Positions 10,111 through 20,613 of a stretch of 64,000 bases of DNA are shown here, piece by piece; position 1 is the first letter of the stretch; each line of letters opens with the position of its first letter. The stretch comes from Hyphomonadaceae bacterium ML37 (GTDB lineage Bacteria > Pseudomonadota > Alphaproteobacteria > Caulobacterales > Maricaulaceae): NCBI GenBank assembly GCA_027627685.1, contig CP091241.1, positions 1,613,191-1,677,190 on the forward strand, given 5' to 3'. Both the position numbers and the translations under genes were made by a program. Under the pieces are notes generated by a model. The model did not search any database. It saw only the letters and a list, made by a program, of their open reading frames with translations, and was not told where the DNA came from.

Positions 10111-10974
10111 TCAGGCGAGCCCGGCGAGAAACGAATCTATGGCCCGGGCCGCTTCGGGCTCGGTCAGCAGCGGAGCATGGCCCACATCGGGGACTTCGGC
10201 ATAGGCCATATGCGGCGCGCGAGCGCGCATATCGTCCACGCAGGAGGCCGCCAGCAGATCCGTGATCGCGCCGCGCACCAGCAGCAGAGGGGAGGCGGCC
10301 AACGCCTCGAATTGCGGCCAGAGATTCGGCGGGGCCACCGCGCTGGAGCGCGCGAGCTTTGAAATGGCGGGATCATAGTCGAACACCACTTCGCCGGTTT
10401 CCAGCTCGCGGCAGGTGCGCCGGGCGAACGCCTCCCAGAACGCCTGGCCGGTTTCTTTGGGAAAGGCCTCGCCATTGATCGCGCGAACGGCGTCCGCCGC
10501 GGCGGACCAGTCGGCGAAAGGCCCTGAAGCCCCGCCCACATAGCCCTGAATGCGCGTCAGCCCCCTTGGGTCCAGCTCGGGCCCGATATCATTGATGATG
10601 GCGCCGGCGATCAGACCGGGGCGGCTTGCGGCCATGATCATGCTTATCAGCCCGCCCATAGAGGTGCCCAGCGTGATCACCCTGTCCCAACCGGCCTGGG
10701 CGAGGACGCCGAACATGTCCTGAACGTAGACGCCGGGATTGTAGTTTTCCGCGACCGGATCATGGTCCGAGTTTCCACGTCCGCGCACGTCAACCGCGAT
10801 TACCGAACGGCCCGCTGCTGTAATAGCCGGTATCACCGCTTCAAAGTCCCGGCTGTTGCGCGTCAGCCCGTGCATGCACAGGACCGGCAGGTGGTCAGAC
10901 CCCGCATCGTAGTGGCGGTGCCAGGTCTTCACGCCATCGGGCGCTGTGTAGTTGCGGGCAGTGTAGCCTGTCAT
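10111..10974 (-). CDS. Alpha/beta hydrolase, cytoplasmic
   Basis: 287 residues with no signal peptide. The AB_hydrolase_1 fold shows CMHGLTRN (oxyanion), VDVRGRGNSD, the nucleophile elbow GTSMGG (Ser ~105), an acid near GAITD and the base in DVGHAPLL, so the triad is intact. Its start codon overlaps the tetR stop as ATGA, which places it directly under that regulator. Together with the next hydrolase, the divergent TonB receptor and the MFS gene, it suggests processing of an imported ester or lactone-type substrate. The substrate cannot be read from sequence. Confidence 0.85.
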   Translation of the reverse strand: MTGYTARNYTAPDGVKTWHRHYDAGSDHLPVLCMHGLTRNSRDFEAVIPAITAAGRSVIAVDVRGRGNSDHDPVAENYNPGVYVQDMFGVLAQAGWDRVITLGTSMGGLISMIMAASRPGLIAGAIINDIGPELDPRGLTRIQGYVGGASGPFADWSAAADAVRAINGEAFPKETGQAFWEAFARRTCRELETGEVVFDYDPAISKLARSSAVAPPNLWPQFEALAASPLLLVRGAITDLLAASCVDDMRARAPHMAYAEVPDVGHAPLLTEPEAARAIDSFLAGLA

Positions 10975-11681
10975 GTGTTCGGGTTTCCTGCGGTCTGGTT
11001 CTCACGTTCGGCGCGCGCTTCGGCGTCCTTCGCGCACAGACGGCGAAACCCGGCTGCGATGAAGTCTGGCAGCCGGTCGGCGACGGCCTTGATGTCTGTG
11101 GATTTGCACATGCCACCGGACAAGGTATCGATCCGGCCCGTCTCGGCGAAAGTAAGCACCAGCGCGCCGGACAGGAAGTGATAGCTCCAGAACAGCTCTT
11201 CCTCGGGGCAATCGGGCAACGCCTTGCGGATGGACTGAAGGAAGCGGCGCACGATCGGGTCATAATATTTTGACATCACAGCGCCGCCCCAGTCCGGCGC
11301 GTTGGTGATCTGGCCGATCAGGGCGAAATAGCTTTTCCATCCCGGATCCCCGTGGATCGACCGGTCCAGCAGCGGATGGGTGAAGGCGGCGATGATCTGC
11401 TCGACGGTCGGCCCGCCTGGCCCGGCCTCGCGCTCACAGGCTTCCAGCTCCTGCAACCGGACCTGATTGAGCTGTTCGGCGCGGCGCAGCAAAACGTCGT
11501 CGAACAGCTCTCGCTTGCCGCCGAAATAATACGTCACCAGAGCCGGGTCACTCTCGGCTTCGCGCGCGATCTCCCGGACAGTCACGCCGTGGAAGCCCTT
11601 GAGGGCGAACAGTTTCTCGGCTGCGTCGAGCAGCTTCTCGCGGGTGACTTCACCGCGGCCGAGTTTGCGGGCGACTGCCAT
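10971..11681 (-). CDS. TetR-family transcriptional regulator
   Basis: 236 residues from the ATG at 11679-11681 (MAVARKLGRGEV); an upstream frame extension lacks conservation and runs into the promoter region. The N-terminal helix-turn-helix (about residues 15-60) contains LLDAAEKLFALKGFHGVTVREIA and DPALVTYYFGGKRELF, here quoted in pieces, the classic TetR layout. The C-terminal ligand-binding region has the TetR_C form seen near CerR/YbiH-like regulators. It is divergent from the TonB receptor gene and overlaps the hydrolase gene by 4 bp. A 12-bp palindrome between the genes is the likely operator, so I infer ligand-relieved repression of both sides. Confidence 0.88.
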   Translation of the reverse strand: MAVARKLGRGEVTREKLLDAAEKLFALKGFHGVTVREIAREAESDPALVTYYFGGKRELFDDVLLRRAEQLNQVRLQELEACEREAGPGGPTVEQIIAAFTHPLLDRSIHGDPGWKSYFALIGQITNAPDWGGAVMSKYYDPIVRRFLQSIRKALPDCPEEELFWSYHFLSGALVLTFAETGRIDTLSGGMCKSTDIKAVADRLPDFIAAGFRRLCAKDAEARAERENQTAGNPNT

Positions 11682-11801
11682 GCGGCCTCGCTTGTTTTGG
11701 GAGCAGTTGGAACGGTCGCTCCGGGTCCGGACAGTGTGGCGCTCACGCCTCACAGATTTGTCTCAACGTCTGAGGAAAGTCTAATTGCCGTTGACTTTTC
11801 A

Positions 11802-11813
11802 TTCAACGTTGAA
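11802..11813. promoter_or_regulatory. Perfect 12-bp palindrome, likely TetR operator between divergent promoters
   Basis: TTCAACGTTGAA is a perfect inverted repeat. It sits between a plus-strand -35-like TTGACT (11791-11796) and -10-like AATTAT (11813-11818, 4 of 6 matches, spacer 16). On the minus strand a -35-like TTGAAT (11801-11806) and -10-like TAGACT (11778-11783, spacer 17) overlap the same site. A related imperfect repeat, CTCAACGTCTGAG, lies at 11762-11774. This is the geometry expected for a TetR repressor controlling itself and the receptor gene. The promoter boxes are read by eye. Confidence 0.5.
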
Positions 11814-11875
11814 ATTATCGCCGCCGAAGCGCCCCGTCAGTTGGGCGCACGGGCAATACCAGGGAGGGATGCTCA

Positions 11876-14167
11876 ATGACCATGCTCAAGAAAATTACGA
11901 CGGCTGCTGTCCTGTTGACCAGCGCATCGTGCCTGCCGTTCGCTGCTGCGGCGGTCGCTCAGGAAACCAGCGCCAGCGACGCTCCGGCCCGTGACGTGAT
12001 AACGGTCACCGCCCGGCGCCGCGAAGAGTCACTGCAGGACGTCCCGGTCTCGGTGACGGCCTATTCCGGCGCCCAGCTGGAAGCCATCGGCGCCCAGGAC
12101 ATCACCCGAATCGCCCAGACCACGCCGAACGTGACGCTGGAAGTGTCGCGCGGCACCAACTCGACGCTGTCCGCCTTCATCCGCGGCGTCGGCCAGCAGG
12201 ACCCGGTCGCCGGCTTCGAAGCAGGCGTGGGCATCTATATCGACGACGTGTATCTCAACCGTCCCCAGGGCGCCGTTCTGGACATTTTTGACGTCGAGCG
12301 CATCGAAGTGCTGCGCGGCCCGCAAGGCACGCTCTATGGCCGCAACACGGTCGGCGGCGCGGTGAAGTATGTGACCCGCCGTCTCGATGCCGAATCGCCG
12401 ACCTTCTCCGCGCGCCTGAATATCGGCAGCTACGAGCAGCGCGATCTGATCCTGACCGGTTCGGCGCCGCTCACCGACACGTTCCGCGTCGGCGGCGCAA
12501 TTGCGCGTCTGAACCGTGGCGGTTTCGGCACGAACCTGACCAATGGCGAAGACAATTACGACAAGGATGTCTGGGCCGGCCGGATCTCCGCCGAGTTCGA
12601 GCCCACCGACCGCATCTTCATCCGCGCGGTCTATGACCGCACCGAAGACTCGTCCAATCCGCGCGGCGGCCACCGTCTGATCACCTCGCTCCTGACCGGC
12701 GCGCCCGTGCTCGACAACGAGTTCGACACCCGGGCCGGCCTGAACGTCGTCGACCAGAACATCGAAGCGCAGGGCCTGTCGCTGTCGGGTGATTTCCAGA
12801 TCAATGACCAGTGGACCTTCCGCTCCATCACCGCATGGCGCGAAGACAGCTCCGTCACCCCGATTGACTTTGACTCGCTTCCCGCCGCTGACCTCGATGT
12901 GCCGGCGATCTATGAGAACGAGCAGTTCAGCCAGGAATTCCAGCTGGTCTACACCGGCGAGCGCCTGAATGGCATCATCGGCGCTTACTATCTCGACGCG
13001 GAAGCCTCAACGGTGTTCGACGTGGTGCTGGCCAATACCGGCGCGCTGATCGGCCTGCCGGGCCTGAACGCCCAGACCTTCGGCGACGTCAGCACTGAAA
13101 CCTGGTCGATCTTTGGCGACTTCTCCTACGATCTGACCCCCGAATGGTCGGTGTCGCTGGGCGCGCGCTACACCCATGACGAGCGCTCCTCCATCGTTCT
13201 GCGCCGCACCTATATCGGCGGCTTCTCGGAGTTCTTCGGCGGCAATCCGACCCTGATCGCCACCACCTCGGACTTCAACGGCTCGGAAAGCTGGACTGAT
13301 TTCAGCCCGCGCCTGTCGGTCTCCTATCGTCCTGACGACGCGAACAATTTTTACGCCAGCTTCTCCCAGGGCTTCAAAGGCGGCAGCTTCGACCCGCGCG
13401 GCCAGACCTCTGTGGCGATCGGCGCCGGCATTGACGTGTTCGAGTTCATGCGCTTCGAGCCGGAAACCGTGAACGCCTACGAGGCGGGCTGGAAGTTCGC
13501 CGACGGCCCGTACCGTCACTCGCTGGCCTTCTTTTACAATGACTACACCGACGTTCAGGTGCCCGGCTCCATCGGCGTGGACACTGATAATGACGGCGTG
13601 TTCGATACCTTCTCGGGCGTGACCACCAATGCCGGTGCGGCGACCATCTGGGGCTTCGAGTATGAAGGCGCCCTGGGCCTGGCCGAAGACGCCTTCAGAA
13701 CTGGAGACACGCTCGATTTCAACTGGGCTGTGGGTTACCTGAATGGCCAGTATGATCAGTTCATCAACGCCTTCGGCGTGGACGTTTCCGATACGGCGGT
13801 GATCCAGAACACCCCCGAATGGATGGCCGCGGGCACGCTGAACTACACCGTGCCGGTGTCCAACGGCGCCCTGTCGATCATCAACACGCTGGCCTATCGC
13901 GGCGCCTACAGCCAGTTCGAGATCCCCAATGCGACGCTGGATCAGGACGGCTACACCCTGTGGAACGCCTCGGCGGTCTGGAACTCCAATGACGGCCGCT
14001 GGCAGGCGGGCGTTCATGGCCGCAACCTGACCGACGAGCGCTACAAGGTGTCGGGCTATAACTTCATGAACGCCAACGGCACGCCGAACCTTGGTCTCGA
14101 AGGCACGCTGACCGCCTTCTACGGCGATCCGCGCACCGTCACCGCCACTATCGCATTCCGCTACTAG
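11876..14167 (+). CDS. TonB-dependent outer-membrane receptor
   Basis: 763 residues. The signal peptide ends near AAAVAQE. A TonB-box-like segment DVITVTARRREESLQ follows, then the plug domain (about 50-165, with YGRNTVGGAVKYVT) and a 22-strand beta barrel ending in an aromatic residue (AFRY), as needed for outer-membrane insertion. The type is the TBDR subgroup abundant in Caulobacterales and sphingomonads that takes up unknown carbon compounds, not a recognisable siderophore receptor. It is divergent from tetR, followed by a strong terminator and then the MFS gene, so uptake across both membranes is encoded side by side. Confidence 0.93.
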   Translation: MTMLKKITTAAVLLTSASCLPFAAAAVAQETSASDAPARDVITVTARRREESLQDVPVSVTAYSGAQLEAIGAQDITRIAQTTPNVTLEVSRGTNSTLSAFIRGVGQQDPVAGFEAGVGIYIDDVYLNRPQGAVLDIFDVERIEVLRGPQGTLYGRNTVGGAVKYVTRRLDAESPTFSARLNIGSYEQRDLILTGSAPLTDTFRVGGAIARLNRGGFGTNLTNGEDNYDKDVWAGRISAEFEPTDRIFIRAVYDRTEDSSNPRGGHRLITSLLTGAPVLDNEFDTRAGLNVVDQNIEAQGLSLSGDFQINDQWTFRSITAWREDSSVTPIDFDSLPAADLDVPAIYENEQFSQEFQLVYTGERLNGIIGAYYLDAEASTVFDVVLANTGALIGLPGLNAQTFGDVSTETWSIFGDFSYDLTPEWSVSLGARYTHDERSSIVLRRTYIGGFSEFFGGNPTLIATTSDFNGSESWTDFSPRLSVSYRPDDANNFYASFSQGFKGGSFDPRGQTSVAIGAGIDVFEFMRFEPETVNAYEAGWKFADGPYRHSLAFFYNDYTDVQVPGSIGVDTDNDGVFDTFSGVTTNAGAATIWGFEYEGALGLAEDAFRTGDTLDFNWAVGYLNGQYDQFINAFGVDVSDTAVIQNTPEWMAAGTLNYTVPVSNGALSIINTLAYRGAYSQFEIPNATLDQDGYTLWNASAVWNSNDGRWQAGVHGRNLTDERYKVSGYNFMNANGTPNLGLEGTLTAFYGDPRTVTATIAFRY

Positions 14168-14186
14168 GGGGGCAGGCGAGGGGGAC

Positions 14187-14230
14187 AAGCGCCGCTGCGC
14201 CCGGAACCGGGCCAGCGGCGCTTTTTCTTT
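14187..14230 (+). terminator. Rho-independent terminator after the TonB receptor gene
   Basis: AAGCGCCGCTG (14187-14197) pairs perfectly with CAGCGGCGCTT (14213-14223). The loop contains a further CCCGG/CCGGG pairing, and TTTTTCTTT follows. It lies 20 bp after the receptor stop and separates it from the MFS gene. Confidence 0.9.
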
Positions 14231-14305
14231 GCAGTGACGGATACTTCGGTTCCATCATGACGCCTGCGCCCTGGAGCGCCAAAAAGACAGACCATGGGGA
14301 GCGAC

Positions 14306-16138
14306 ATGACCACCGCCAGCCAGTCTCCGGGGGCCGCCGAGCCCGCGCCGCCCACGACGCGCTATCGCGCGTGGGTCCTGTTCATGCTCTTCATCGTTTA
14401 CGCGTTCAATTTCCTGGACCGGCAGATCATCTCGATCCTGGCGATTCCGATCCGCGAGGATTTGGGGCTGGATGACCGCCAGCTCGGCCTTTTGGGCGGC
14501 ATCGCGTTTGCCGCGCTCTATTCCACGCTGGGCGTGCCCATCGCGTGGTTGGCCGACCGGTCCAATCGAACCTGGATCATCACGATTTCGCTTACTGTCT
14601 GGAGCGGCTTCACGGCTGTGTGCGGCTTTGCTCAGAATTTCTGGCAGCTGTTCGCCGCCCGGGTCGGCGTCGGGGTGGGCGAGGCCGGCGGCGTCGCCCC
14701 GTCCTATTCCCTGATCGCAGACTATTTTCCGCCGGACGCCCGTGCGCGCGCGCTGGCGATATACTCGCTGGGCATTCCCATCGGCAGCGCCTTCGGCGTG
14801 GTGGCCGGGGCGCAAATTGCGGGCGGAGCCATTGGCGAGGATCTCGACTGGCGCGCCGCCTTCATCATTGTGGGTCTGGCCGGCGTGCTGATCGCGCCCA
14901 TTTTCAAACTCACCATGCGCGAACCCAAGCGCGGCGGGCTGGACGTCAAGGCCGGCGCCGCTGCGGCCAAGCTCCAGCCCGAGCCGGGTGAGGCGGCGAG
15001 CGTTGGCGTGCCGGGCGAAATGGGCGCGCGGATCGTGGGCGCGCCGATGCGGCCAGGCGTCATGGCCTCGATCACCCAGGCCCTCGGATCCATCGCGGCG
15101 TTCTCCGGACGCGCCCGGCGGTCAATCTTCTGGTGGCCGTATCTGTTTGTGTTCTTCGCACAGCTGGTCGTCACGACCGTCCACCTGTTCACGCAGCTCC
15201 CCTTCATCTTGCTGCTCGTTTCGGCCTGCCTGCCGGCCCTGCTGCTGGCGACAGCAGTGCGCCGCATGAACGATTGCGGCCGGTCGCCGCTATGGCTGGT
15301 TGTGCCGATCGCGGTCCAGGCTGCGGGGCAGTATCTGTTCGTCACCGGCATGGCCCCGGCGGGGGTTCTTCTCGGCCTGGCCGGGTTCATGACGCTGGTC
15401 GGTTTCCTGGCCGCGCCGTCAGCGCCGGACAATGCGCACGGGCCGTCACCGGTCCCGGCCGACTATCTCGAGCGGCTGTACAAGCTCGCTAACCCGGGCA
15501 TTCCTGATGTTCTGGCGGTGCTGATCCCCAAGCGGTCCTTCTGGCTTCTGGTGCTCGGCGCGTCCTGTTCGTCCATGATGGGATATGGCGTGTTTTTCTG
15601 GGTGCCCAGCTTCTTCGCCCGCAGTTTCCAGCTCGACATCATCTCCACCGGCTGGCTGTTTGGCGGCATATTGTTCGTCGGCGGCACGCTAGGCATCTTG
15701 CTGGGCGGCGTGCTCGGGGACCTGATGGGGAAGGGCTCCAAGAAAATGTATGCGATCGTGCCTGCGGTCGCCTTCTTCCTGGCCTTCCCGATGTATGTGG
15801 CTGGAACCCTCGCGCCGACGCCGTTGATCGGCGCCTTGATCTTCATCATCCCCACAGGTCTCGGCCTCGCCTGGCTTGGCCCGACATTGTCTGCGTTCCA
15901 ACATCTGGCGCCTTCGAATATGCGCTCCATGGCCTCGGCGGTGTTCCTGCTGATCAACAATCTGCTCGGCATCGGCGTCGGCGTTTATGTGCTGGGCGAG
16001 ATCTCCACCCTGCTCACGCCGGTCTTCCAGCAGGAAGCGCTGCGCTATTCGATCATGGTCGGCGCCTCGCTCTACGCGGTGGCCGGCGTGCTGTTCCTGG
16101 TGGCCTCGCGCACCATTGTGCGCGACTGGGAAAAGTAG
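14306..16138 (+). CDS. MFS transporter (spinster-like) with inserted DUF805 domain
   Basis: 610 residues from the ATG at 14306, which has GGGGAG five bases upstream; the ATG at 14294 lacks a ribosome site. The N-terminal half is a normal MFS six-helix bundle with FNFLDRQIISIL and the loop motif WLADRSNR. The C-terminal half (from about residue 395) has the second bundle. Between them, at about 255-385, lies a complete DUF805-like domain: FSGRARRSIFWW, VRRMNDCGRSPLW and APDNAHGPSP match the family's three landmarks. DUF805 proteins are normally small separate membrane proteins, so this is a domain insertion in the helix 6-7 loop. The substrate is unknown; the neighbouring TonB receptor suggests the same cargo. 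Confidence 0.85.
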   Translation: MTTASQSPGAAEPAPPTTRYRAWVLFMLFIVYAFNFLDRQIISILAIPIREDLGLDDRQLGLLGGIAFAALYSTLGVPIAWLADRSNRTWIITISLTVWSGFTAVCGFAQNFWQLFAARVGVGVGEAGGVAPSYSLIADYFPPDARARALAIYSLGIPIGSAFGVVAGAQIAGGAIGEDLDWRAAFIIVGLAGVLIAPIFKLTMREPKRGGLDVKAGAAAAKLQPEPGEAASVGVPGEMGARIVGAPMRPGVMASITQALGSIAAFSGRARRSIFWWPYLFVFFAQLVVTTVHLFTQLPFILLLVSACLPALLLATAVRRMNDCGRSPLWLVVPIAVQAAGQYLFVTGMAPAGVLLGLAGFMTLVGFLAAPSAPDNAHGPSPVPADYLERLYKLANPGIPDVLAVLIPKRSFWLLVLGASCSSMMGYGVFFWVPSFFARSFQLDIISTGWLFGGILFVGGTLGILLGGVLGDLMGKGSKKMYAIVPAVAFFLAFPMYVAGTLAPTPLIGALIFIIPTGLGLAWLGPTLSAFQHLAPSNMRSMASAVFLLINNLLGIGVGVYVLGEISTLLTPVFQQEALRYSIMVGASLYAVAGVLFLVASRTIVRDWEK

Positions 16139-16177
16139 CGGTCCCACCGCCCGGCGTCCGCGCCGGCACATCAAACG

Positions 16178-16211
16178 CAAAAAGGGCGGCTGTGGGTGCA
16201 CAGCCGCCCTT
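16178..16211 (-). terminator. Terminator for the DJ-1/PfpI-like gene, probably bidirectional
   Basis: A perfect 13-bp stem (16182-16194 with 16199-16211, AAGGGCGGCTGTG and its complement) has a 4-nt loop. On the minus strand it is followed by TTTTTGCG. It lies 26 bp past the minus-strand gene end and 44 bp past the MFS stop, so it may also stop MFS transcription, although the plus-strand side lacks a good T tract. Confidence 0.85.
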
Positions 16212-16236
16212 CCTGTCTGGATGCGTCGAACCGGCG

Positions 16237-16782
16237 TCAGGCCGCCGCTTCCACCATGCTCAGCGTCTTGACGAAGGTGGAGATGGCGTCGGTGCGCCCG
16301 TCTTCACCGCTGGCCGCGAACAGATCGCCACGCAGCGCCAGCACGGCGTCGCCGCTGTCATTGGGCGTCTTGCCTGCCGCTTCGGTGACCCAGGCGGCCG
16401 CTTCGCCCATCGCCAGCACAGGCTTGCCCGCCGACAGGAAAGCCTGGATGAACAGGCGCGATTCCTGATCCTCGATCAGGCGCGCAATGCCGCGTTCGCC
16501 GCCGGGAACCAGCAGTCCGGCATAGGCGCTGGCGGGCTGTTCGCCGGGATGGCTGTCCACCACGAAATTCATTTCCTCATTGGCCGCAGACCGTCCGCTC
16601 ACCAGCGACTTGTTCGGGCTGACGATGACGGTGCGGTAGCTGCCGCGCTCGGCGGCGGTCGCCACTTCGGTCAGGTCTGACGCATCAAATCCGTCAGCCA
16701 GCAGTACGGCGATGTCTCCGGCCTCGCCAATCTGGGCAAGGTCGATACGGTCGGGACGGTTGGACGGTCGAGTAAAAGCCAC
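16237..16782 (-). CDS. DJ-1/PfpI-fold protein lacking the nucleophile cysteine
   Basis: 181 residues with no cysteine at all. The fold is suggested by DIAVLLADGFDASDL near residue 23, an EEMNFVVDSHPGEQ region, LLVPGG near 91 and AGKPVLAMGEAAAW near 119. In active DJ-1/PfpI proteins the last motif is a nucleophile elbow with Cys (AxCHG); here it is AMGEA, so protease, glyoxalase or peroxidase chemistry is not expected. The closest layout I know is the catalytically silent DJ-1-like C-terminal domain of large-subunit catalases, here as a free protein. It is divergent from the osmolyte operon and carries its own terminator. A stress role is a guess from context. Confidence 0.65.
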   Translation of the reverse strand: MAFTRPSNRPDRIDLAQIGEAGDIAVLLADGFDASDLTEVATAAERGSYRTVIVSPNKSLVSGRSAANEEMNFVVDSHPGEQPASAYAGLLVPGGERGIARLIEDQESRLFIQAFLSAGKPVLAMGEAAAWVTEAAGKTPNDSGDAVLALRGDLFAASGEDGRTDAISTFVKTLSMVEAAA

Positions 16783-17048
16783 ATTTCCTCCTGGCGCCTC
16801 TGATGGCGCTCCACAAACTTTGACAAATGTCGTGACAGGGTGAACGTAGGAAGAAGCTGAGCAACGTCAACATCGCGCAGTGTAATATCAGGCGAAAATC
16901 GGCGTTAACGCCCGCAATTGCCGTGCAAAACTTGCAATCCCGCTCGAATTTCACGACATAGAGCCCGCGCAAAGCCCTGAGGGGCTGCGGAAATTCACAA
17001 GCCATTTGTATGGCCCGTGGCAGGAAAATCCGGGAAAGGAAGACGTGC

Positions 17049-18824
17049 ATGTGCGGTATCGCCGGTGAAGTGCGATTTGATGACCAGCAGCCGGATCTGG
17101 CGGCGCTTGAGCGCGCGACCGCGTCCATGGACCGGCGCGGGCCGGACGCTTCCGGTCTGCACGCGCAGGGGCATGTCGCGTTCGGCCACCGGCGCCTGAA
17201 AATCATTGACCTCACCGACGCGGCCCAGCAGCCGCTGGTGGATTCCCAGCTCGGCCTGACCGTGGTGTTCAACGGCTGCATCTATAATCACCGCGAACTG
17301 CGCGCCGAGCTGGAAGACAAGGGCTATCGCTTCTTCTCCACGGGCGACACCGAAGTGATCGTCAAGGCCTATCACGCCTGGGGTGAGGACTTCGTCCACC
17401 GCATGAACGGCATGTTCGCCTTCGCGATCGCCGAGCGCGACACGGGCCGCGTCCTGATCGGGCGCGACCGGCTGGGGATCAAGCCGCTCTATTACGCCGA
17501 GACACCCGGCGCGATACGCTTTGCCTCCACCCTGCAGGCGCTGCTGGCCTACAAGGATGTGGACCGGTCGCTCGATTCGGACGCGTTGAACTTCTATTTC
17601 AGCTTCCACGCCGTGGTGCCCGCGCCCTGGACCATGGTGCGCGGCGTGCGCAAACTGCCGCCCGCGACCCTGATGCGCATCGAACCGGACGGGCGGCGCA
17701 CGACGCGCCAGTACTGGGATGTCAGCTTCGGTCCGCGCGATGACGAGCGCGGCTATACCCGCGCCGACTGGAAAGAGGTGGTTGCCGATTCCTTGCGCGT
17801 TGCCGTCAAGCGCCGCCTGGTGGCCGATGTGCCGGTGGGCGTGTTGCTCTCGGGCGGGCTCGACAGCTCGCTGATCGTGGGGCTGCTGGCGGAAGCGGGC
17901 CAGACCGGCCTGTCCACTTTCTCCATCGGATTTGAGAGCGTGGGCGAGGAGAAGGGCGACGAGTTCCAGTATTCCGACATCATCGCCAAACGCTTTGAGA
18001 CCGACCACCACCAGATCCGCATCGACACCGACCGCGCGCTGCCGGCGCTGGAAGAGGCCATCGCCGCCATGAGCGAGCCGATGACCAGCCATGACTGCGT
18101 GGGCTTCTACCTGCTCAGCCAGGAAGTTTCGCGCCATGTCAAAGTGGTGCAGTCGGGGCAGGGCGCTGACGAGATTTTCGCCGGCTATCACTGGTACCCG
18201 CCCATGCTGGATACCAATGATCCGCTGGACACCTACGCCAAGGCCTTCTTCGACCGGGACCGCGCCGAGATGGGCAACCTTCTGCAGGACCGCTGGCTGA
18301 ACGGCGACACGCCGCGCGATTTCGTCGCTGAGCATTTCGCCCGTCCCGGTGCGGACCGGCCCATCGACAAGGCGCTGCGCATCGATACCCAGATCATGCT
18401 GACCGATGACCCGGTCAAGCGGGTCGACAACATGACCATGGCCTGGGGCCTGGAAGCGCGTACGCCCTTTCTGGACTATGAGGTGGTTGAAGCTGCCGCG
18501 CGGGTGCCGGGCGAGTTCAAGACGGCCGAGGGCGGCAAGGGCATCCTGAAAGATGTCGGGCGTGATGTGATCCCCCACGAGGTCATTGACCGGCCCAAGG
18601 GCTATTTCCCGGTGCCGGCGCTCAAATATCTGCGCGGGCCCTATCTGGAGCGAGTGCGCGACGCGGTGACGTCGCAGCGCTTTTCAGACGCCGGCATTGT
18701 GCAGCGCGGCTATGTCGATACCCTGCTGGCGGACCCGGAAGCCCATATCACGCCGCTGCGCGCCTCCAAGCTCTACCAGATCGGCTTGCTGGCGATGTGG
18801 CTGGAGGCTCACGATCTTGGCTGA
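17049..18824 (+). CDS. asnO: N-acetylglutaminylglutamine amidotransferase (asparagine-synthase family)
   Basis: 591 residues starting MCGIAGE at the ATG at 17049 (AAAGGAAGA upstream), which puts the class II glutaminase nucleophile at Cys2; longer starts would bury it. The N-terminal Ntn glutaminase domain spans about 1-215. The synthetase domain has the PP-loop SGGLDSS near residue 267. In the NAGGN pathway it converts N-acetylglutaminylglutamine to its amide, a compatible solute made at high salinity. I call this subtype and not asnB because the next genes are ngg and the matching M42 peptidase, a gene trio diagnostic for this pathway. Expression is probably osmotically induced, but no recognisable signal is visible upstream. 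Confidence 0.9.
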   Translation: MCGIAGEVRFDDQQPDLAALERATASMDRRGPDASGLHAQGHVAFGHRRLKIIDLTDAAQQPLVDSQLGLTVVFNGCIYNHRELRAELEDKGYRFFSTGDTEVIVKAYHAWGEDFVHRMNGMFAFAIAERDTGRVLIGRDRLGIKPLYYAETPGAIRFASTLQALLAYKDVDRSLDSDALNFYFSFHAVVPAPWTMVRGVRKLPPATLMRIEPDGRRTTRQYWDVSFGPRDDERGYTRADWKEVVADSLRVAVKRRLVADVPVGVLLSGGLDSSLIVGLLAEAGQTGLSTFSIGFESVGEEKGDEFQYSDIIAKRFETDHHQIRIDTDRALPALEEAIAAMSEPMTSHDCVGFYLLSQEVSRHVKVVQSGQGADEIFAGYHWYPPMLDTNDPLDTYAKAFFDRDRAEMGNLLQDRWLNGDTPRDFVAEHFARPGADRPIDKALRIDTQIMLTDDPVKRVDNMTMAWGLEARTPFLDYEVVEAAARVPGEFKTAEGGKGILKDVGRDVIPHEVIDRPKGYFPVPALKYLRGPYLERVRDAVTSQRFSDAGIVQRGYVDTLLADPEAHITPLRASKLYQIGLLAMWLEAHDLG

Positions 18825-18843
18825 CTCTCTCAAAGGAGGGCGC

Positions 18844-20613
18844 ATGGCCGGACGCAATGCCGACACGCCGCGCAGCGCGCTCAGCCACCGGCTGAAGCGG
18901 ATGCGCGAACATGGCCTGAAGCAGCCGATCAGCGGTCAGGACCGCGGCCAGCCCGACCGGGACGCCGTGGTGGATGCCGGCTGGGGCCGCCTGATCTTCG
19001 CCCAGACCTTTGACGGCGCCGAACCGGTCATCAAAGCGCTGCGCGAGGAGCAGAGCGGCAAGCGCGACATCGCCGTGTATATACGCGACCCCCATGTGGC
19101 GATGGCGGCCGCACCCCAGGAGGTCTTCCTGGACCCGTCCCATACCTTCCGGCTGGATCTATCCACCTATCGCGCCTCGCGCCGCCAGCTGAAGGGCTTT
19201 TTCGTGCGGCGGCTATGCTCCGAAGCCGACGCGCGCGCCGTGAACGTCATCTATGCGGGACGCGGCATGGTGGCGGTGGACCCGGACTTTTTCTGGCGCC
19301 AGCGCGACAGCCGCAGCCAGACCTATCTGGTCGCCGAAGACACTGAAACGGGTGAGGTGCTGGGCGCCGTCACAGGCATCGATCACGGACGCGCCTTCGC
19401 CGATCCCGAGCATGGCAGCTCGCTATGGTGCCTGGCGGTGGATTCGCGCGCGCCCCATGCCGGCATTGGCGAAGCGCTGGTGCGCCGCCTGGCCGAGCTG
19501 TTCCTTGCGCGCGGCTGCGCGTTCATGGATTTGTCGGTCCTGCACGACAATGAGTCTGCCATTGCGCTCTATGAAAAGCTCGGCTTCCGGCGCGCGCCGT
19601 ATTTCACGCTGAAGCGCAAGAACACCATCAATGAGAAGCTCTTCATCGCGCCTGCGCCCGAGCAGGGGCTGAACCCCTATGCGCGCATCATTGTGGATGA
19701 AGCCCGCCGCCGCGGCATTGGCGTGGACGTGCTGGACGCCGAGGGCGGGTTCTTCAAGCTGACCCATGGCGGACGCTCGGTGGTCTGCCGGGAGTCGCTG
19801 AGCGAACTGACCCACGCCGTCGCCATGAGCCGCTGCGACGATAAATCCGTAACCCGGCGCCTGATGATCGAGGCCGGCGTGCCGACGCCCGAACAGCTCA
19901 GCCTGTCGCCCAAGACGGATGATCTGTCAGAGGCCGAAGCCTTTCTGCAAAAGCACGGCTCCATCGTGGTGAAACCAGCGCGCGGCGAACAGGGGCGGGG
20001 CGTGTCGGTTGGCATTGAAACGCGCGAAGACCTGAAGGCCGCGTTCGAGGACGCCCGCGCCCATGGCGGCGCGGTGCTGGTGGAGCAATGCGTGGCCGGG
20101 GATGATTTGCGCGTTCTGGTGATCAATGACGCGGTGGTGGCGGCCGCCTTGCGCAAGCCGCCTCAAATCCGCGGTGATGGGGTAAAGACCGCCCGCCAGC
20201 TGATCGAGGGCCTGTCGCGCCGCCGCGCCGCCGCTACAGGGGGCGAATCCACCGTGCCGCTGGACGCCGAAACCGAGCGCAATGTCGCGCGCGCCGGCTA
20301 TCAGCTGGACGATATTCCCAAGGCTGGCGAGGTCATCCGCGTACGGCGCACCGCCAATCTGCACACAGGGGGCGCGCTTCACGACGTCACCGACAAGCTC
20401 CATCCCGCCATCGAGCGCAGCGCCCTGGCCGCGGCGCGCGCCATCGAGATTCCGGTGGTCGGCGTGGACTTCATCGTCACCGCGCCCGATGCGCCCGACC
20501 ATGTCTTCATTGAAGCCAATGAGCGCCCGGGCCTGGCCAATCACGAACCCCAGCCGACAGCTGAACGCTTCATCGATCTGTTGTTTCCGCTATCGGCCCC
20601 GCGCAAGACCTGA
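18844..20613 (+). CDS. ngg: N-acetylglutaminylglutamine synthetase (GNAT plus ATP-grasp)
   Basis: 589 residues from the ATG at 18844, directly behind AAAGGAGGG. Two catalytic modules are fused. A GNAT acetyltransferase lies at about 110-265, with an LAVDSRAPHAGIGEAL acetyl-CoA loop and NESAIALYEKLGFRRAP. An ATP-grasp ligase occupies about 300-585, with SIVVKPARGEQGRGVS and the metal-binding IEANERPGL. This pair acetylates glutamine and joins it to a second glutamine. It begins 19 bp after asnO and is followed after 12 bp by the peptidase, so the three form one transcript. Confidence 0.93.
   Translation: MAGRNADTPRSALSHRLKRMREHGLKQPISGQDRGQPDRDAVVDAGWGRLIFAQTFDGAEPVIKALREEQSGKRDIAVYIRDPHVAMAAAPQEVFLDPSHTFRLDLSTYRASRRQLKGFFVRRLCSEADARAVNVIYAGRGMVAVDPDFFWRQRDSRSQTYLVAEDTETGEVLGAVTGIDHGRAFADPEHGSSLWCLAVDSRAPHAGIGEALVRRLAELFLARGCAFMDLSVLHDNESAIALYEKLGFRRAPYFTLKRKNTINEKLFIAPAPEQGLNPYARIIVDEARRRGIGVDVLDAEGGFFKLTHGGRSVVCRESLSELTHAVAMSRCDDKSVTRRLMIEAGVPTPEQLSLSPKTDDLSEAEAFLQKHGSIVVKPARGEQGRGVSVGIETREDLKAAFEDARAHGGAVLVEQCVAGDDLRVLVINDAVVAAALRKPPQIRGDGVKTARQLIEGLSRRRAAATGGESTVPLDAETERNVARAGYQLDDIPKAGEVIRVRRTANLHTGGALHDVTDKLHPAIERSALAAARAIEIPVVGVDFIVTAPDAPDHVFIEANERPGLANHEPQPTAERFIDLLFPLSAPRKT

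What the first reader, a model, noticed from the sequence alone, without database searches (positions are those of the whole stretch)
14306..16138. MFS transporter with a whole DUF805 membrane domain inserted between its two six-helix halves
Residues about 255-385 hold the three DUF805 landmarks (FSGRARRSIFWW, VRRMNDCGRSPLW, APDNAHGPSP) in order, between clear MFS N- and C-terminal bundles and with no frame break. DUF805 is normally a small stand-alone protein. The insertion would add about four helices in the loop where MFS proteins are often regulated. It may gate the transporter or bring in a partner.
Basis: partly seen in the sequence, partly recalled or inferred. Interest (0 to 1): 0.7.

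Follow-up and report, generated by a model that had tools for sequence, protein, structure and literature searches.

The report
Transporter with a DUF805 domain inside
A marine bacterium carries a membrane transporter of a well-known type that has a second, unrelated membrane domain built into the loop between its two halves; related transporters carry other membrane inserts in the same loop, so the loop seems to accept new parts, but what the added part does is unknown.

Summary
One intact ORF (likely start 14306) has MFS_1 matches on both sides of a DUF805 match at residues 268-382 (E 4.2e-11, 43.7 bits, cut-off 25.7), on a single-contig genome. A second genome of the same genus (G188, Oceanicaulis sp. 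MMSF_3324) has the same layout, so two genes or an assembly error are very unlikely.

The host protein is a Spinster-like MFS transporter next to a TonB receptor and a TetR regulator; the HnSpns proton-switch residues are conserved. AlphaFold gives confident MFS bundles and four insert helices at low to moderate confidence.

The insert is rare: 2 of 15 genus genomes, and no further long frame among the matches listed for 398 order, 385 class and 398 phylum genomes. Codon positions show purifying selection. Four-fold sites hint that the two inserts are older than their flanks (7 of 28 same against 99 of 197). Eleven Maricaulis-group relatives hold an unrelated four-helix insert in the same loop, and G168 a two-helix one.

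The insert's job is not shown. A membrane strap or docking module is my best guess; a tolerated passenger is almost as likely.

The parts
14306..16138 (+). MFS transporter ORF with DUF805 insert (610 codons from Met5; the ORF listing gives 14294 as first ATG)
14366..14938 (+). MFS N-terminal bundle (residues 25-215 of the 614-codon frame), with D42, R43, R123, E130, D143 = HnSpns D41, R42, R122, E129, D142
14939..15058 (+). 5' linker (residues 216-255), low-confidence in the model
15059..15469 (+). insert (residues 256-392): helix 256-276 plus four predicted membrane helices 280-299, 303-327, 332-350, 354-372
15095..15439 (+). Pfam DUF805 match (residues 268-382)
15500..16129 (+). MFS C-terminal bundle (residues 403-612), Y431 = HnSpns Y277
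11876..14167 (+). TonB-dependent receptor next to the transporter, conserved neighbour
10971..11753 (-). TetR-type regulator (TetR_N, TetR_C_30), divergent from the receptor

Best explanation
The gene makes a Spinster-like, probably proton-coupled MFS transporter that works with the neighbouring TonB receptor (inferred from the locus). In its cytoplasmic loop between TM6 and TM7 sits a DUF805 domain of the extended, four-segment subtype, giving about 16 membrane helices. An even number of added helices leaves the second bundle in its normal orientation, so transport chemistry is kept. The insert most likely lies beside the MFS core as a membrane-embedded strap or docking module between the two bundles, as TMA/TMB do in EmrB and HA/HB in peptide transporters. 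Shown: the architecture, its second occurrence, the conserved switch residues, purifying selection on the insert. Inferred: membrane placement, topology, substrate and strap or docking function. Odds: architecture as described 0.95; Spinster-like working transporter 0.85; strap or docking role for the insert 0.4.
For: Domain matches; same layout in L023; HnSpns 6e8j the nearest solved chain, E 1.5e-51, with D42, R43, R123, E130, D143 and Y431 aligned to the residues discussed in PMC9440201; Foldseek best matches are Spinster structures. Model: bundles mostly above 85 pLDDT, insert helices 51-78, mean 82.0, pTM 0.73. Purifying selection: codon positions 1+2 more alike than position 3 between the two inserts, p 4e-7. 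Other inserts at this site also add an even number of helices: four in L055 (mean pLDDT 90, pTM 0.87), two hydrophobic segments in G168. Known precedent for helices in this loop (passages). TonB receptor plus MFS plus regulator as an uptake locus is known for sucrose in Xanthomonas (passages).
Against: The insert helices are only low to moderate confidence, with two sequences covering them in the alignment; a hydropathy scan at a fixed cut-off finds three segments in the window's insert and four in G188's (the same scan undercounts MFS helices too). Most orthologs work without any insert. Each insert keeps only 14 of 24 DUF805-conserved positions, and identity between inserts is not clearly higher at those positions than elsewhere (13 of 24 against 38 of 110, p 0.06). 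No substrate or phenotype is known.
Confidence: 0.5

Rival explanations
1. Tolerated passenger: the long, fast-changing linker accepts membrane domains with an even number of helices, and the DUF805 copy does nothing important for transport.
For: Sporadic presence (2 of 15 genus genomes; 1 of 103 distinct relatives besides the window has DUF805, 11 have another insert, 91 have a short linker). Three unrelated inserts at one site. Divergent DUF805 positions (14 of 24 kept). Both insert-bearers have insert-free nearest kin.
Against: Codon positions 1+2 are conserved over position 3 between the inserts (p 4e-7) and the GR-RR-W, RR-D and N-G-P signature residues are kept in both, so the insert has been under selection, at least for being a membrane-compatible fold.
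Confidence: 0.4
2. The insert keeps a DUF805 function of its own (for instance as a surface or entry factor for phages or toxins, or a partner-binding protein) and the fusion simply couples its amount to the transporter.
For: E. coli YhaH is a DUF805 protein (E 4.5e-35) and a yhaH mutant was resistant to two phages, with sensitivity restored by complementation (PMC12548472, passages). A second, separate DUF805-MFS fusion exists: DUF805 in front of an AmpG-family transporter in G061.
Against: Function of DUF805 is otherwise unknown; the inserts have lost 10 of 24 conserved positions.
Confidence: 0.12
3. Two genes or an assembly or frame error.
For: None found.
Against: Single-contig genome, no stop inside, same layout in an independent genome, selection across the insert.
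Confidence: 0.02

Closest known systems
Spinster (Spns) MFS transporters, e.g. HnSpns (PDB 6e8j, 6e9c) and SPNS2
   Same: Both bundles, the NF-D-R, R, G-E and D switch residues; best sequence and fold matches.
   Different: HnSpns has no such insert in the matched sequence; substrate and direction unknown for both; the TonB-receptor neighbour is a feature of this group's loci.
14-helix DHA2 transporters (EmrB, QacA) and POT transporters (PepTSo) with TMA/TMB or HA/HB
   Different: Two helices there, about four here; here the insert is a recognisable member of another protein family and sporadic among close relatives.
Standalone DUF805 proteins (PF05656), e.g. E. coli YhaH and YhaI
   Same: Pfam match over cut-off; profile comparison with five standalone DUF805 gives 99.4% and E 7e-22.
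   Different: Built into a transporter; 55-57 residues between the RR-D and N-G motifs against a median of 38 in 45 standalone rows, though longer standalone forms of 59-61 exist; 10 of 24 conserved positions changed.
DUF805-AmpG fusion in G061 (L184)
   Same: DUF805 joined to an MFS transporter in one frame.
   Different: DUF805 is at the N terminus, the transporter is AmpG family; in G116 and G233 the upstream match runs on in frame across one TGA.

Membership tests
MFS / Spinster-like transporter | MFS_1 profile over both bundles above cut-off | tested here: met
   148.2 bits against 33.4, two stretches
MFS / Spinster-like transporter | HnSpns proton-switch and binding residues (D41, R42, R122, E129, D142, Y277) | tested here: met
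   D42, R43, R123, E130, D143 invariant and Y431 nearly invariant in A5
MFS / Spinster-like transporter | proton-coupled transport | not testable with these tools
   needs an assay
MFS / Spinster-like transporter | NCBIfam equivalog or subfamily model above its cut-off | tested here: not met
   best TIGR00893 117.7 bits against 395; no specific model fits, so no substrate is assigned
DUF805 (PF05656) | profile match above gathering score over nearly the full model | tested here: met
   43.7 bits against 25.7, model 2-109 of 111; for L023
DUF805 (PF05656) | family-conserved positions | tested here: inconclusive
   14 of 24 kept in each insert, standalone rows median 24, minimum 16
MFS with extra helices in the central loop (DHA2 / POT type) | membrane helices between TM6 and TM7 | tested here: inconclusive
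   four insert helices, pLDDT 51-78; three hydrophobic segments in the window insert, four in G188
DHA2 or POT family | two extra helices and family sequence signature | tested here: not met
   about four extra helices; best relatives are Spinster chains

The most novel reading that the evidence does not exclude
The TM6-TM7 loop of this Spinster-like group is a capture site for whole membrane modules: DUF805 (at least two lineages, possibly captured more than once), an orphan four-helix domain in the Maricaulis group and a two-helix insert in G168 arose separately, always with an even number of helices, and make 14- to 16-helix transporters whose added modules are kept by selection and tune transport or bind partners.
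Probability: 0.25. Interest if true: 0.65.

Novelty: new variant of a known kind. Interest (0 to 1): 0.45.

Why it matters
Extra helices between the MFS bundles are known in DHA2 and peptide transporters, but there they are old and family-wide. Here near-identical transporters with and without the insert exist in sister species, and one site carries different membrane modules in different relatives. That gives a natural experiment on what an extra membrane module does to an MFS transporter and on how such modules are gained, and it offers a handle on DUF805, whose function is unknown apart from one link to phage sensitivity in E. coli.

Tried and rejected
Two genes or frame error: rejected. 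Maricaulis insert as a decayed DUF805: profile comparison gives 0.1% probability, so not supported; it has no solved relative at better than E 0.25, and Pfam gave only weak matches in one of three (HisKA_4TM E 0.006 below cut-off). Extension of the insert as a mark unique to the fused form: my first reading, withdrawn after searches showed standalone DUF805 of the same length class (59-61). Import of the window's DUF805 plus C half from a donor: my first reading (note), replaced, where window and G196 are evenly 84-87% alike in TetR, MFS halves, DJ-1 and asnB while G221 and G220 resemble G173 more in the C half (84-86%) than in DJ-1 (75-76%); so the sisters more likely imported their C half. 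The AU test does not reject window + G221 + G220 + G138 + G173 on the C half (p 0.18), nor window + G196 on the N half (p 0.073). Alignment A3 with viral DUF805 pieces misaligned them and was not used. Viral scans gave few DUF805 (7, 1 and 1 loci). Foldseek on whole models returned only MFS structures in the rows shown, so nothing on the inserts. Plasmid search: 40 records, none covering 80% of the protein in one place. PMC9427106 was opened for DUF805 and held no mention in its main text.

Full report
What is there. The frame 14294-16138 (+) is open for 614 codons; the likely start is the second ATG at 14306, which has GGGGAG just before it and where relatives also have a Met. Pfam finds MFS_1 in two stretches (E 3.8e-43) and DUF805 at residues 268-382 (E 4.2e-11, 43.7 bits, cut-off 25.7). 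The window lies in a one-contig genome of 3.04 Mb; DUF805 occurs there at two places, this one and one in a separate 193-codon frame.

The host transporter. The nearest solved chain is the bacterial Spinster homologue HnSpns, 6e8j, E 1.5e-51. In its alignment HnSpns D41, R42, R122, E129, D142 and Y277, which passages of PMC9440201 treat as proton switches or binding-site residues, face D42, R43, R123, E130, D143 and Y431. Foldseek puts Spinster structures at the top. No NCBIfam model reaches its cut-off, so no substrate is assigned. Upstream lie a TonB-dependent receptor and a divergent TetR-type regulator; the regulator's best NCBIfam match, PsrA, is far below its cut-off (98 against 300 bits). 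The three stand together in many Maricaulaceae loci. A TonB receptor, an MFS transporter and a regulator form the sucrose uptake locus of Xanthomonas (PMC1790865, passages); an uptake role here is inference.

The insert. Profile comparison of the two known inserts with five standalone DUF805 gives 99.4% probability, E 7e-22. AlphaFold (47 sequences, of which two cover the insert) gives mean pLDDT 82.0 and pTM 0.73, MFS helices mostly above 85, and four insert helices, 280-299, 303-327, 332-350 and 354-372, with block pLDDT of 51-78. A fixed-cut-off hydropathy scan finds three segments in the window's insert and four in G188's; it finds only 9 in an ordinary 12-helix relative, so it undercounts. 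Four added helices would leave the second bundle in its usual orientation; that is inference.

Who has it. In the genus, 14 of 15 genomes have a match at E 1e-80 or better, and two, the window's and G188, span the insert. With the insert as query, 27 of 398 order genomes match at 1e-5, and only these two lie in frames over 600 codons; the other 25 lie in frames of 126-434. With a profile of both inserts, 52 of 385 class genomes and 75 of 398 phylum genomes match at 1e-6; apart from the window's own, no listed match lies in a frame over 359 codons. The samples overlap in part, and more diverged DUF805 inserts could be missed. A plain DUF805 search of 150 order genomes was listed only in part; it brought up one other DUF805-MFS fusion, G061, described below. 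Of 103 distinct relatives compared (the window excluded), one (G188) has a 185-residue gap between the bundles, 11 have 136-139 residues and 91 have at most 41.

Other inserts at the same site. The 11 are Maricaulis or of its genus code. Their insert has no DUF805 signal (hhalign 0.1%), was found only inside such frames (7 of 249 order genomes, all one genus, frames of 568-613 codons), and is predicted as four helices with high confidence (whole model mean pLDDT 90.0, pTM 0.87). These carriers form one clade in both half-trees (100/98) and the two neighbours TetR and TonB receptor were not found beside them, so they may be a paralogous group. G168 has a two-segment insert in the loop.

History. 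Trees were made of 45 of the 103 relatives plus the window (those at least 68% identical in the N half and 44% in the C half; 58 rows dropped). In the N half the window sits with G221 and G220 (96/89); in the C half with G196 (85/81), in a 13-row group (97/96) that leaves out G221, G220, G173 and G138 (100/97). On the C half the AU test rejects window + G221 + G220 (p 3e-27), but not that trio with G138 and G173 added (p 0.18); on the N half it does not reject window + G196 (p 0.073). It rejects the two insert-bearers as sisters on both halves (C p 1e-5, N p 4e-4). DNA identity between window and G221 is 85-95% on both sides but 68-77% over most of the C half. Window and G196 are evenly alike, while G221 and G220 are closer to G173 in the C half than in DJ-1, so the sisters probably took in a foreign C half and the window's is native. 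G196 in turn has a receptor unlike the window's (63%) and like that of G202 (81%). The locus is a mosaic.

One capture or more? The two inserts are sisters among DUF805 (99/94; 100/98), on long branches. Their hosts' nearest kin lack the insert. At four-fold sites in codons for the same residue the inserts agree at 7 of 28, the MFS halves at 99 of 197 (one-sided p 0.0096), TetR at 46 of 93, the receptor at 167 of 296, DJ-1 at 28 of 64. So the inserts seem older than their surroundings: either two captures from one DUF805 subtype, or one old insert-bearing allele whose flanks were exchanged. The sample is small. I first took the 55-57 residue spacing between motifs (standalone median 38, 45 rows) as unique to the fused form, but standalone proteins with 59-61 exist, so it marks a subtype only.

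Selection. Between the inserts, codon positions 1, 2 and 3 agree at 0.44, 0.61 and 0.27 over 135 codons (1+2 against 3, p 4e-7); shuffled codons give 0.26, 0.31 and 0.25. The insert is thus kept as a protein. Against a fully working DUF805: each insert keeps 14 of 24 positions conserved in 48 standalone rows (median 24, minimum 16), and the two inserts are not clearly more alike there (13 of 24) than elsewhere (38 of 110; p 0.06).

How it may work. Extra helices between MFS bundles are known: TMA and TMB of EmrB lie against the periphery of the core and their counterparts in QacA and Tet(L) matter for function (PMC13139468, passages); HA and HB of PepTSo are thought to give rigidity (PMC5599477, passages). 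By analogy the DUF805 module is most likely a membrane strap or docking part; that step is inference, and a tolerated passenger is nearly as likely. DUF805 has one phenotype in the papers seen: a yhaH deletion allele in E. coli gave resistance to two phages, reversed by complementation (PMC12548472, passages), and YhaH is DUF805.

Print record. The word DUF805 occurs in 8 papers of the library searched, in no title or abstract (listing only; one opened); searches for MFS with domain fusion, 16 transmembrane or DUF805 and for DUF805 with YhaH or bacteriocin listed nothing about a DUF805-MFS fusion. The library lacks most subscription journals, so absence from print is not shown.

Noticed in passing
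L184:402-3317 (-), G061: A second DUF805-MFS fusion: DUF805 (residues 300-415, E 8e-22) in front of an AmpG-family muropeptide transporter (TIGR00901, 455.6 bits, cut-off 350). Among 49 of 200 order genomes that match, G116 and G233 match from residue 71 across one TGA, as if the two were neighbouring genes there.
   Followed up: partly
L043-L045, L047, L053-L055, L057-L059, L127-L130: Orphan four-helix domain in the same MFS loop in the Maricaulis group, predicted with high confidence, no Pfam family.
   Followed up: partly
L183:1628-3223 (+), G168: Relative with a two-segment hydrophobic insert in the same loop, a possible 14-helix form.
   Followed up: partly
window 10500-20600 against L150 and L152: Mosaic locus: the MFS C half is exchanged in G221 and G220, the TonB receptor in G196, with conserved neighbours on both sides.
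   Followed up: partly
window 17010-18824 and 18697-20613 (+): N-acetylglutaminylglutamine amidotransferase and synthetase (TIGR03104, TIGR03103, both above cut-off), genes named for a dipeptide known (recalled) as an osmolyte, next to the transporter locus.
   Followed up: no
window 16237-16782 (-): DJ-1/PfpI family protein between transporter and amidotransferase, 100% identical in G221.
   Followed up: no
L232-L237 (G1024, G949, G804, G881, G1046, G1021): Standalone DUF805 of an extended form with a PS-DN-YG tail like that of the inserts, in a genus of another class of the phylum.
   Followed up: partly
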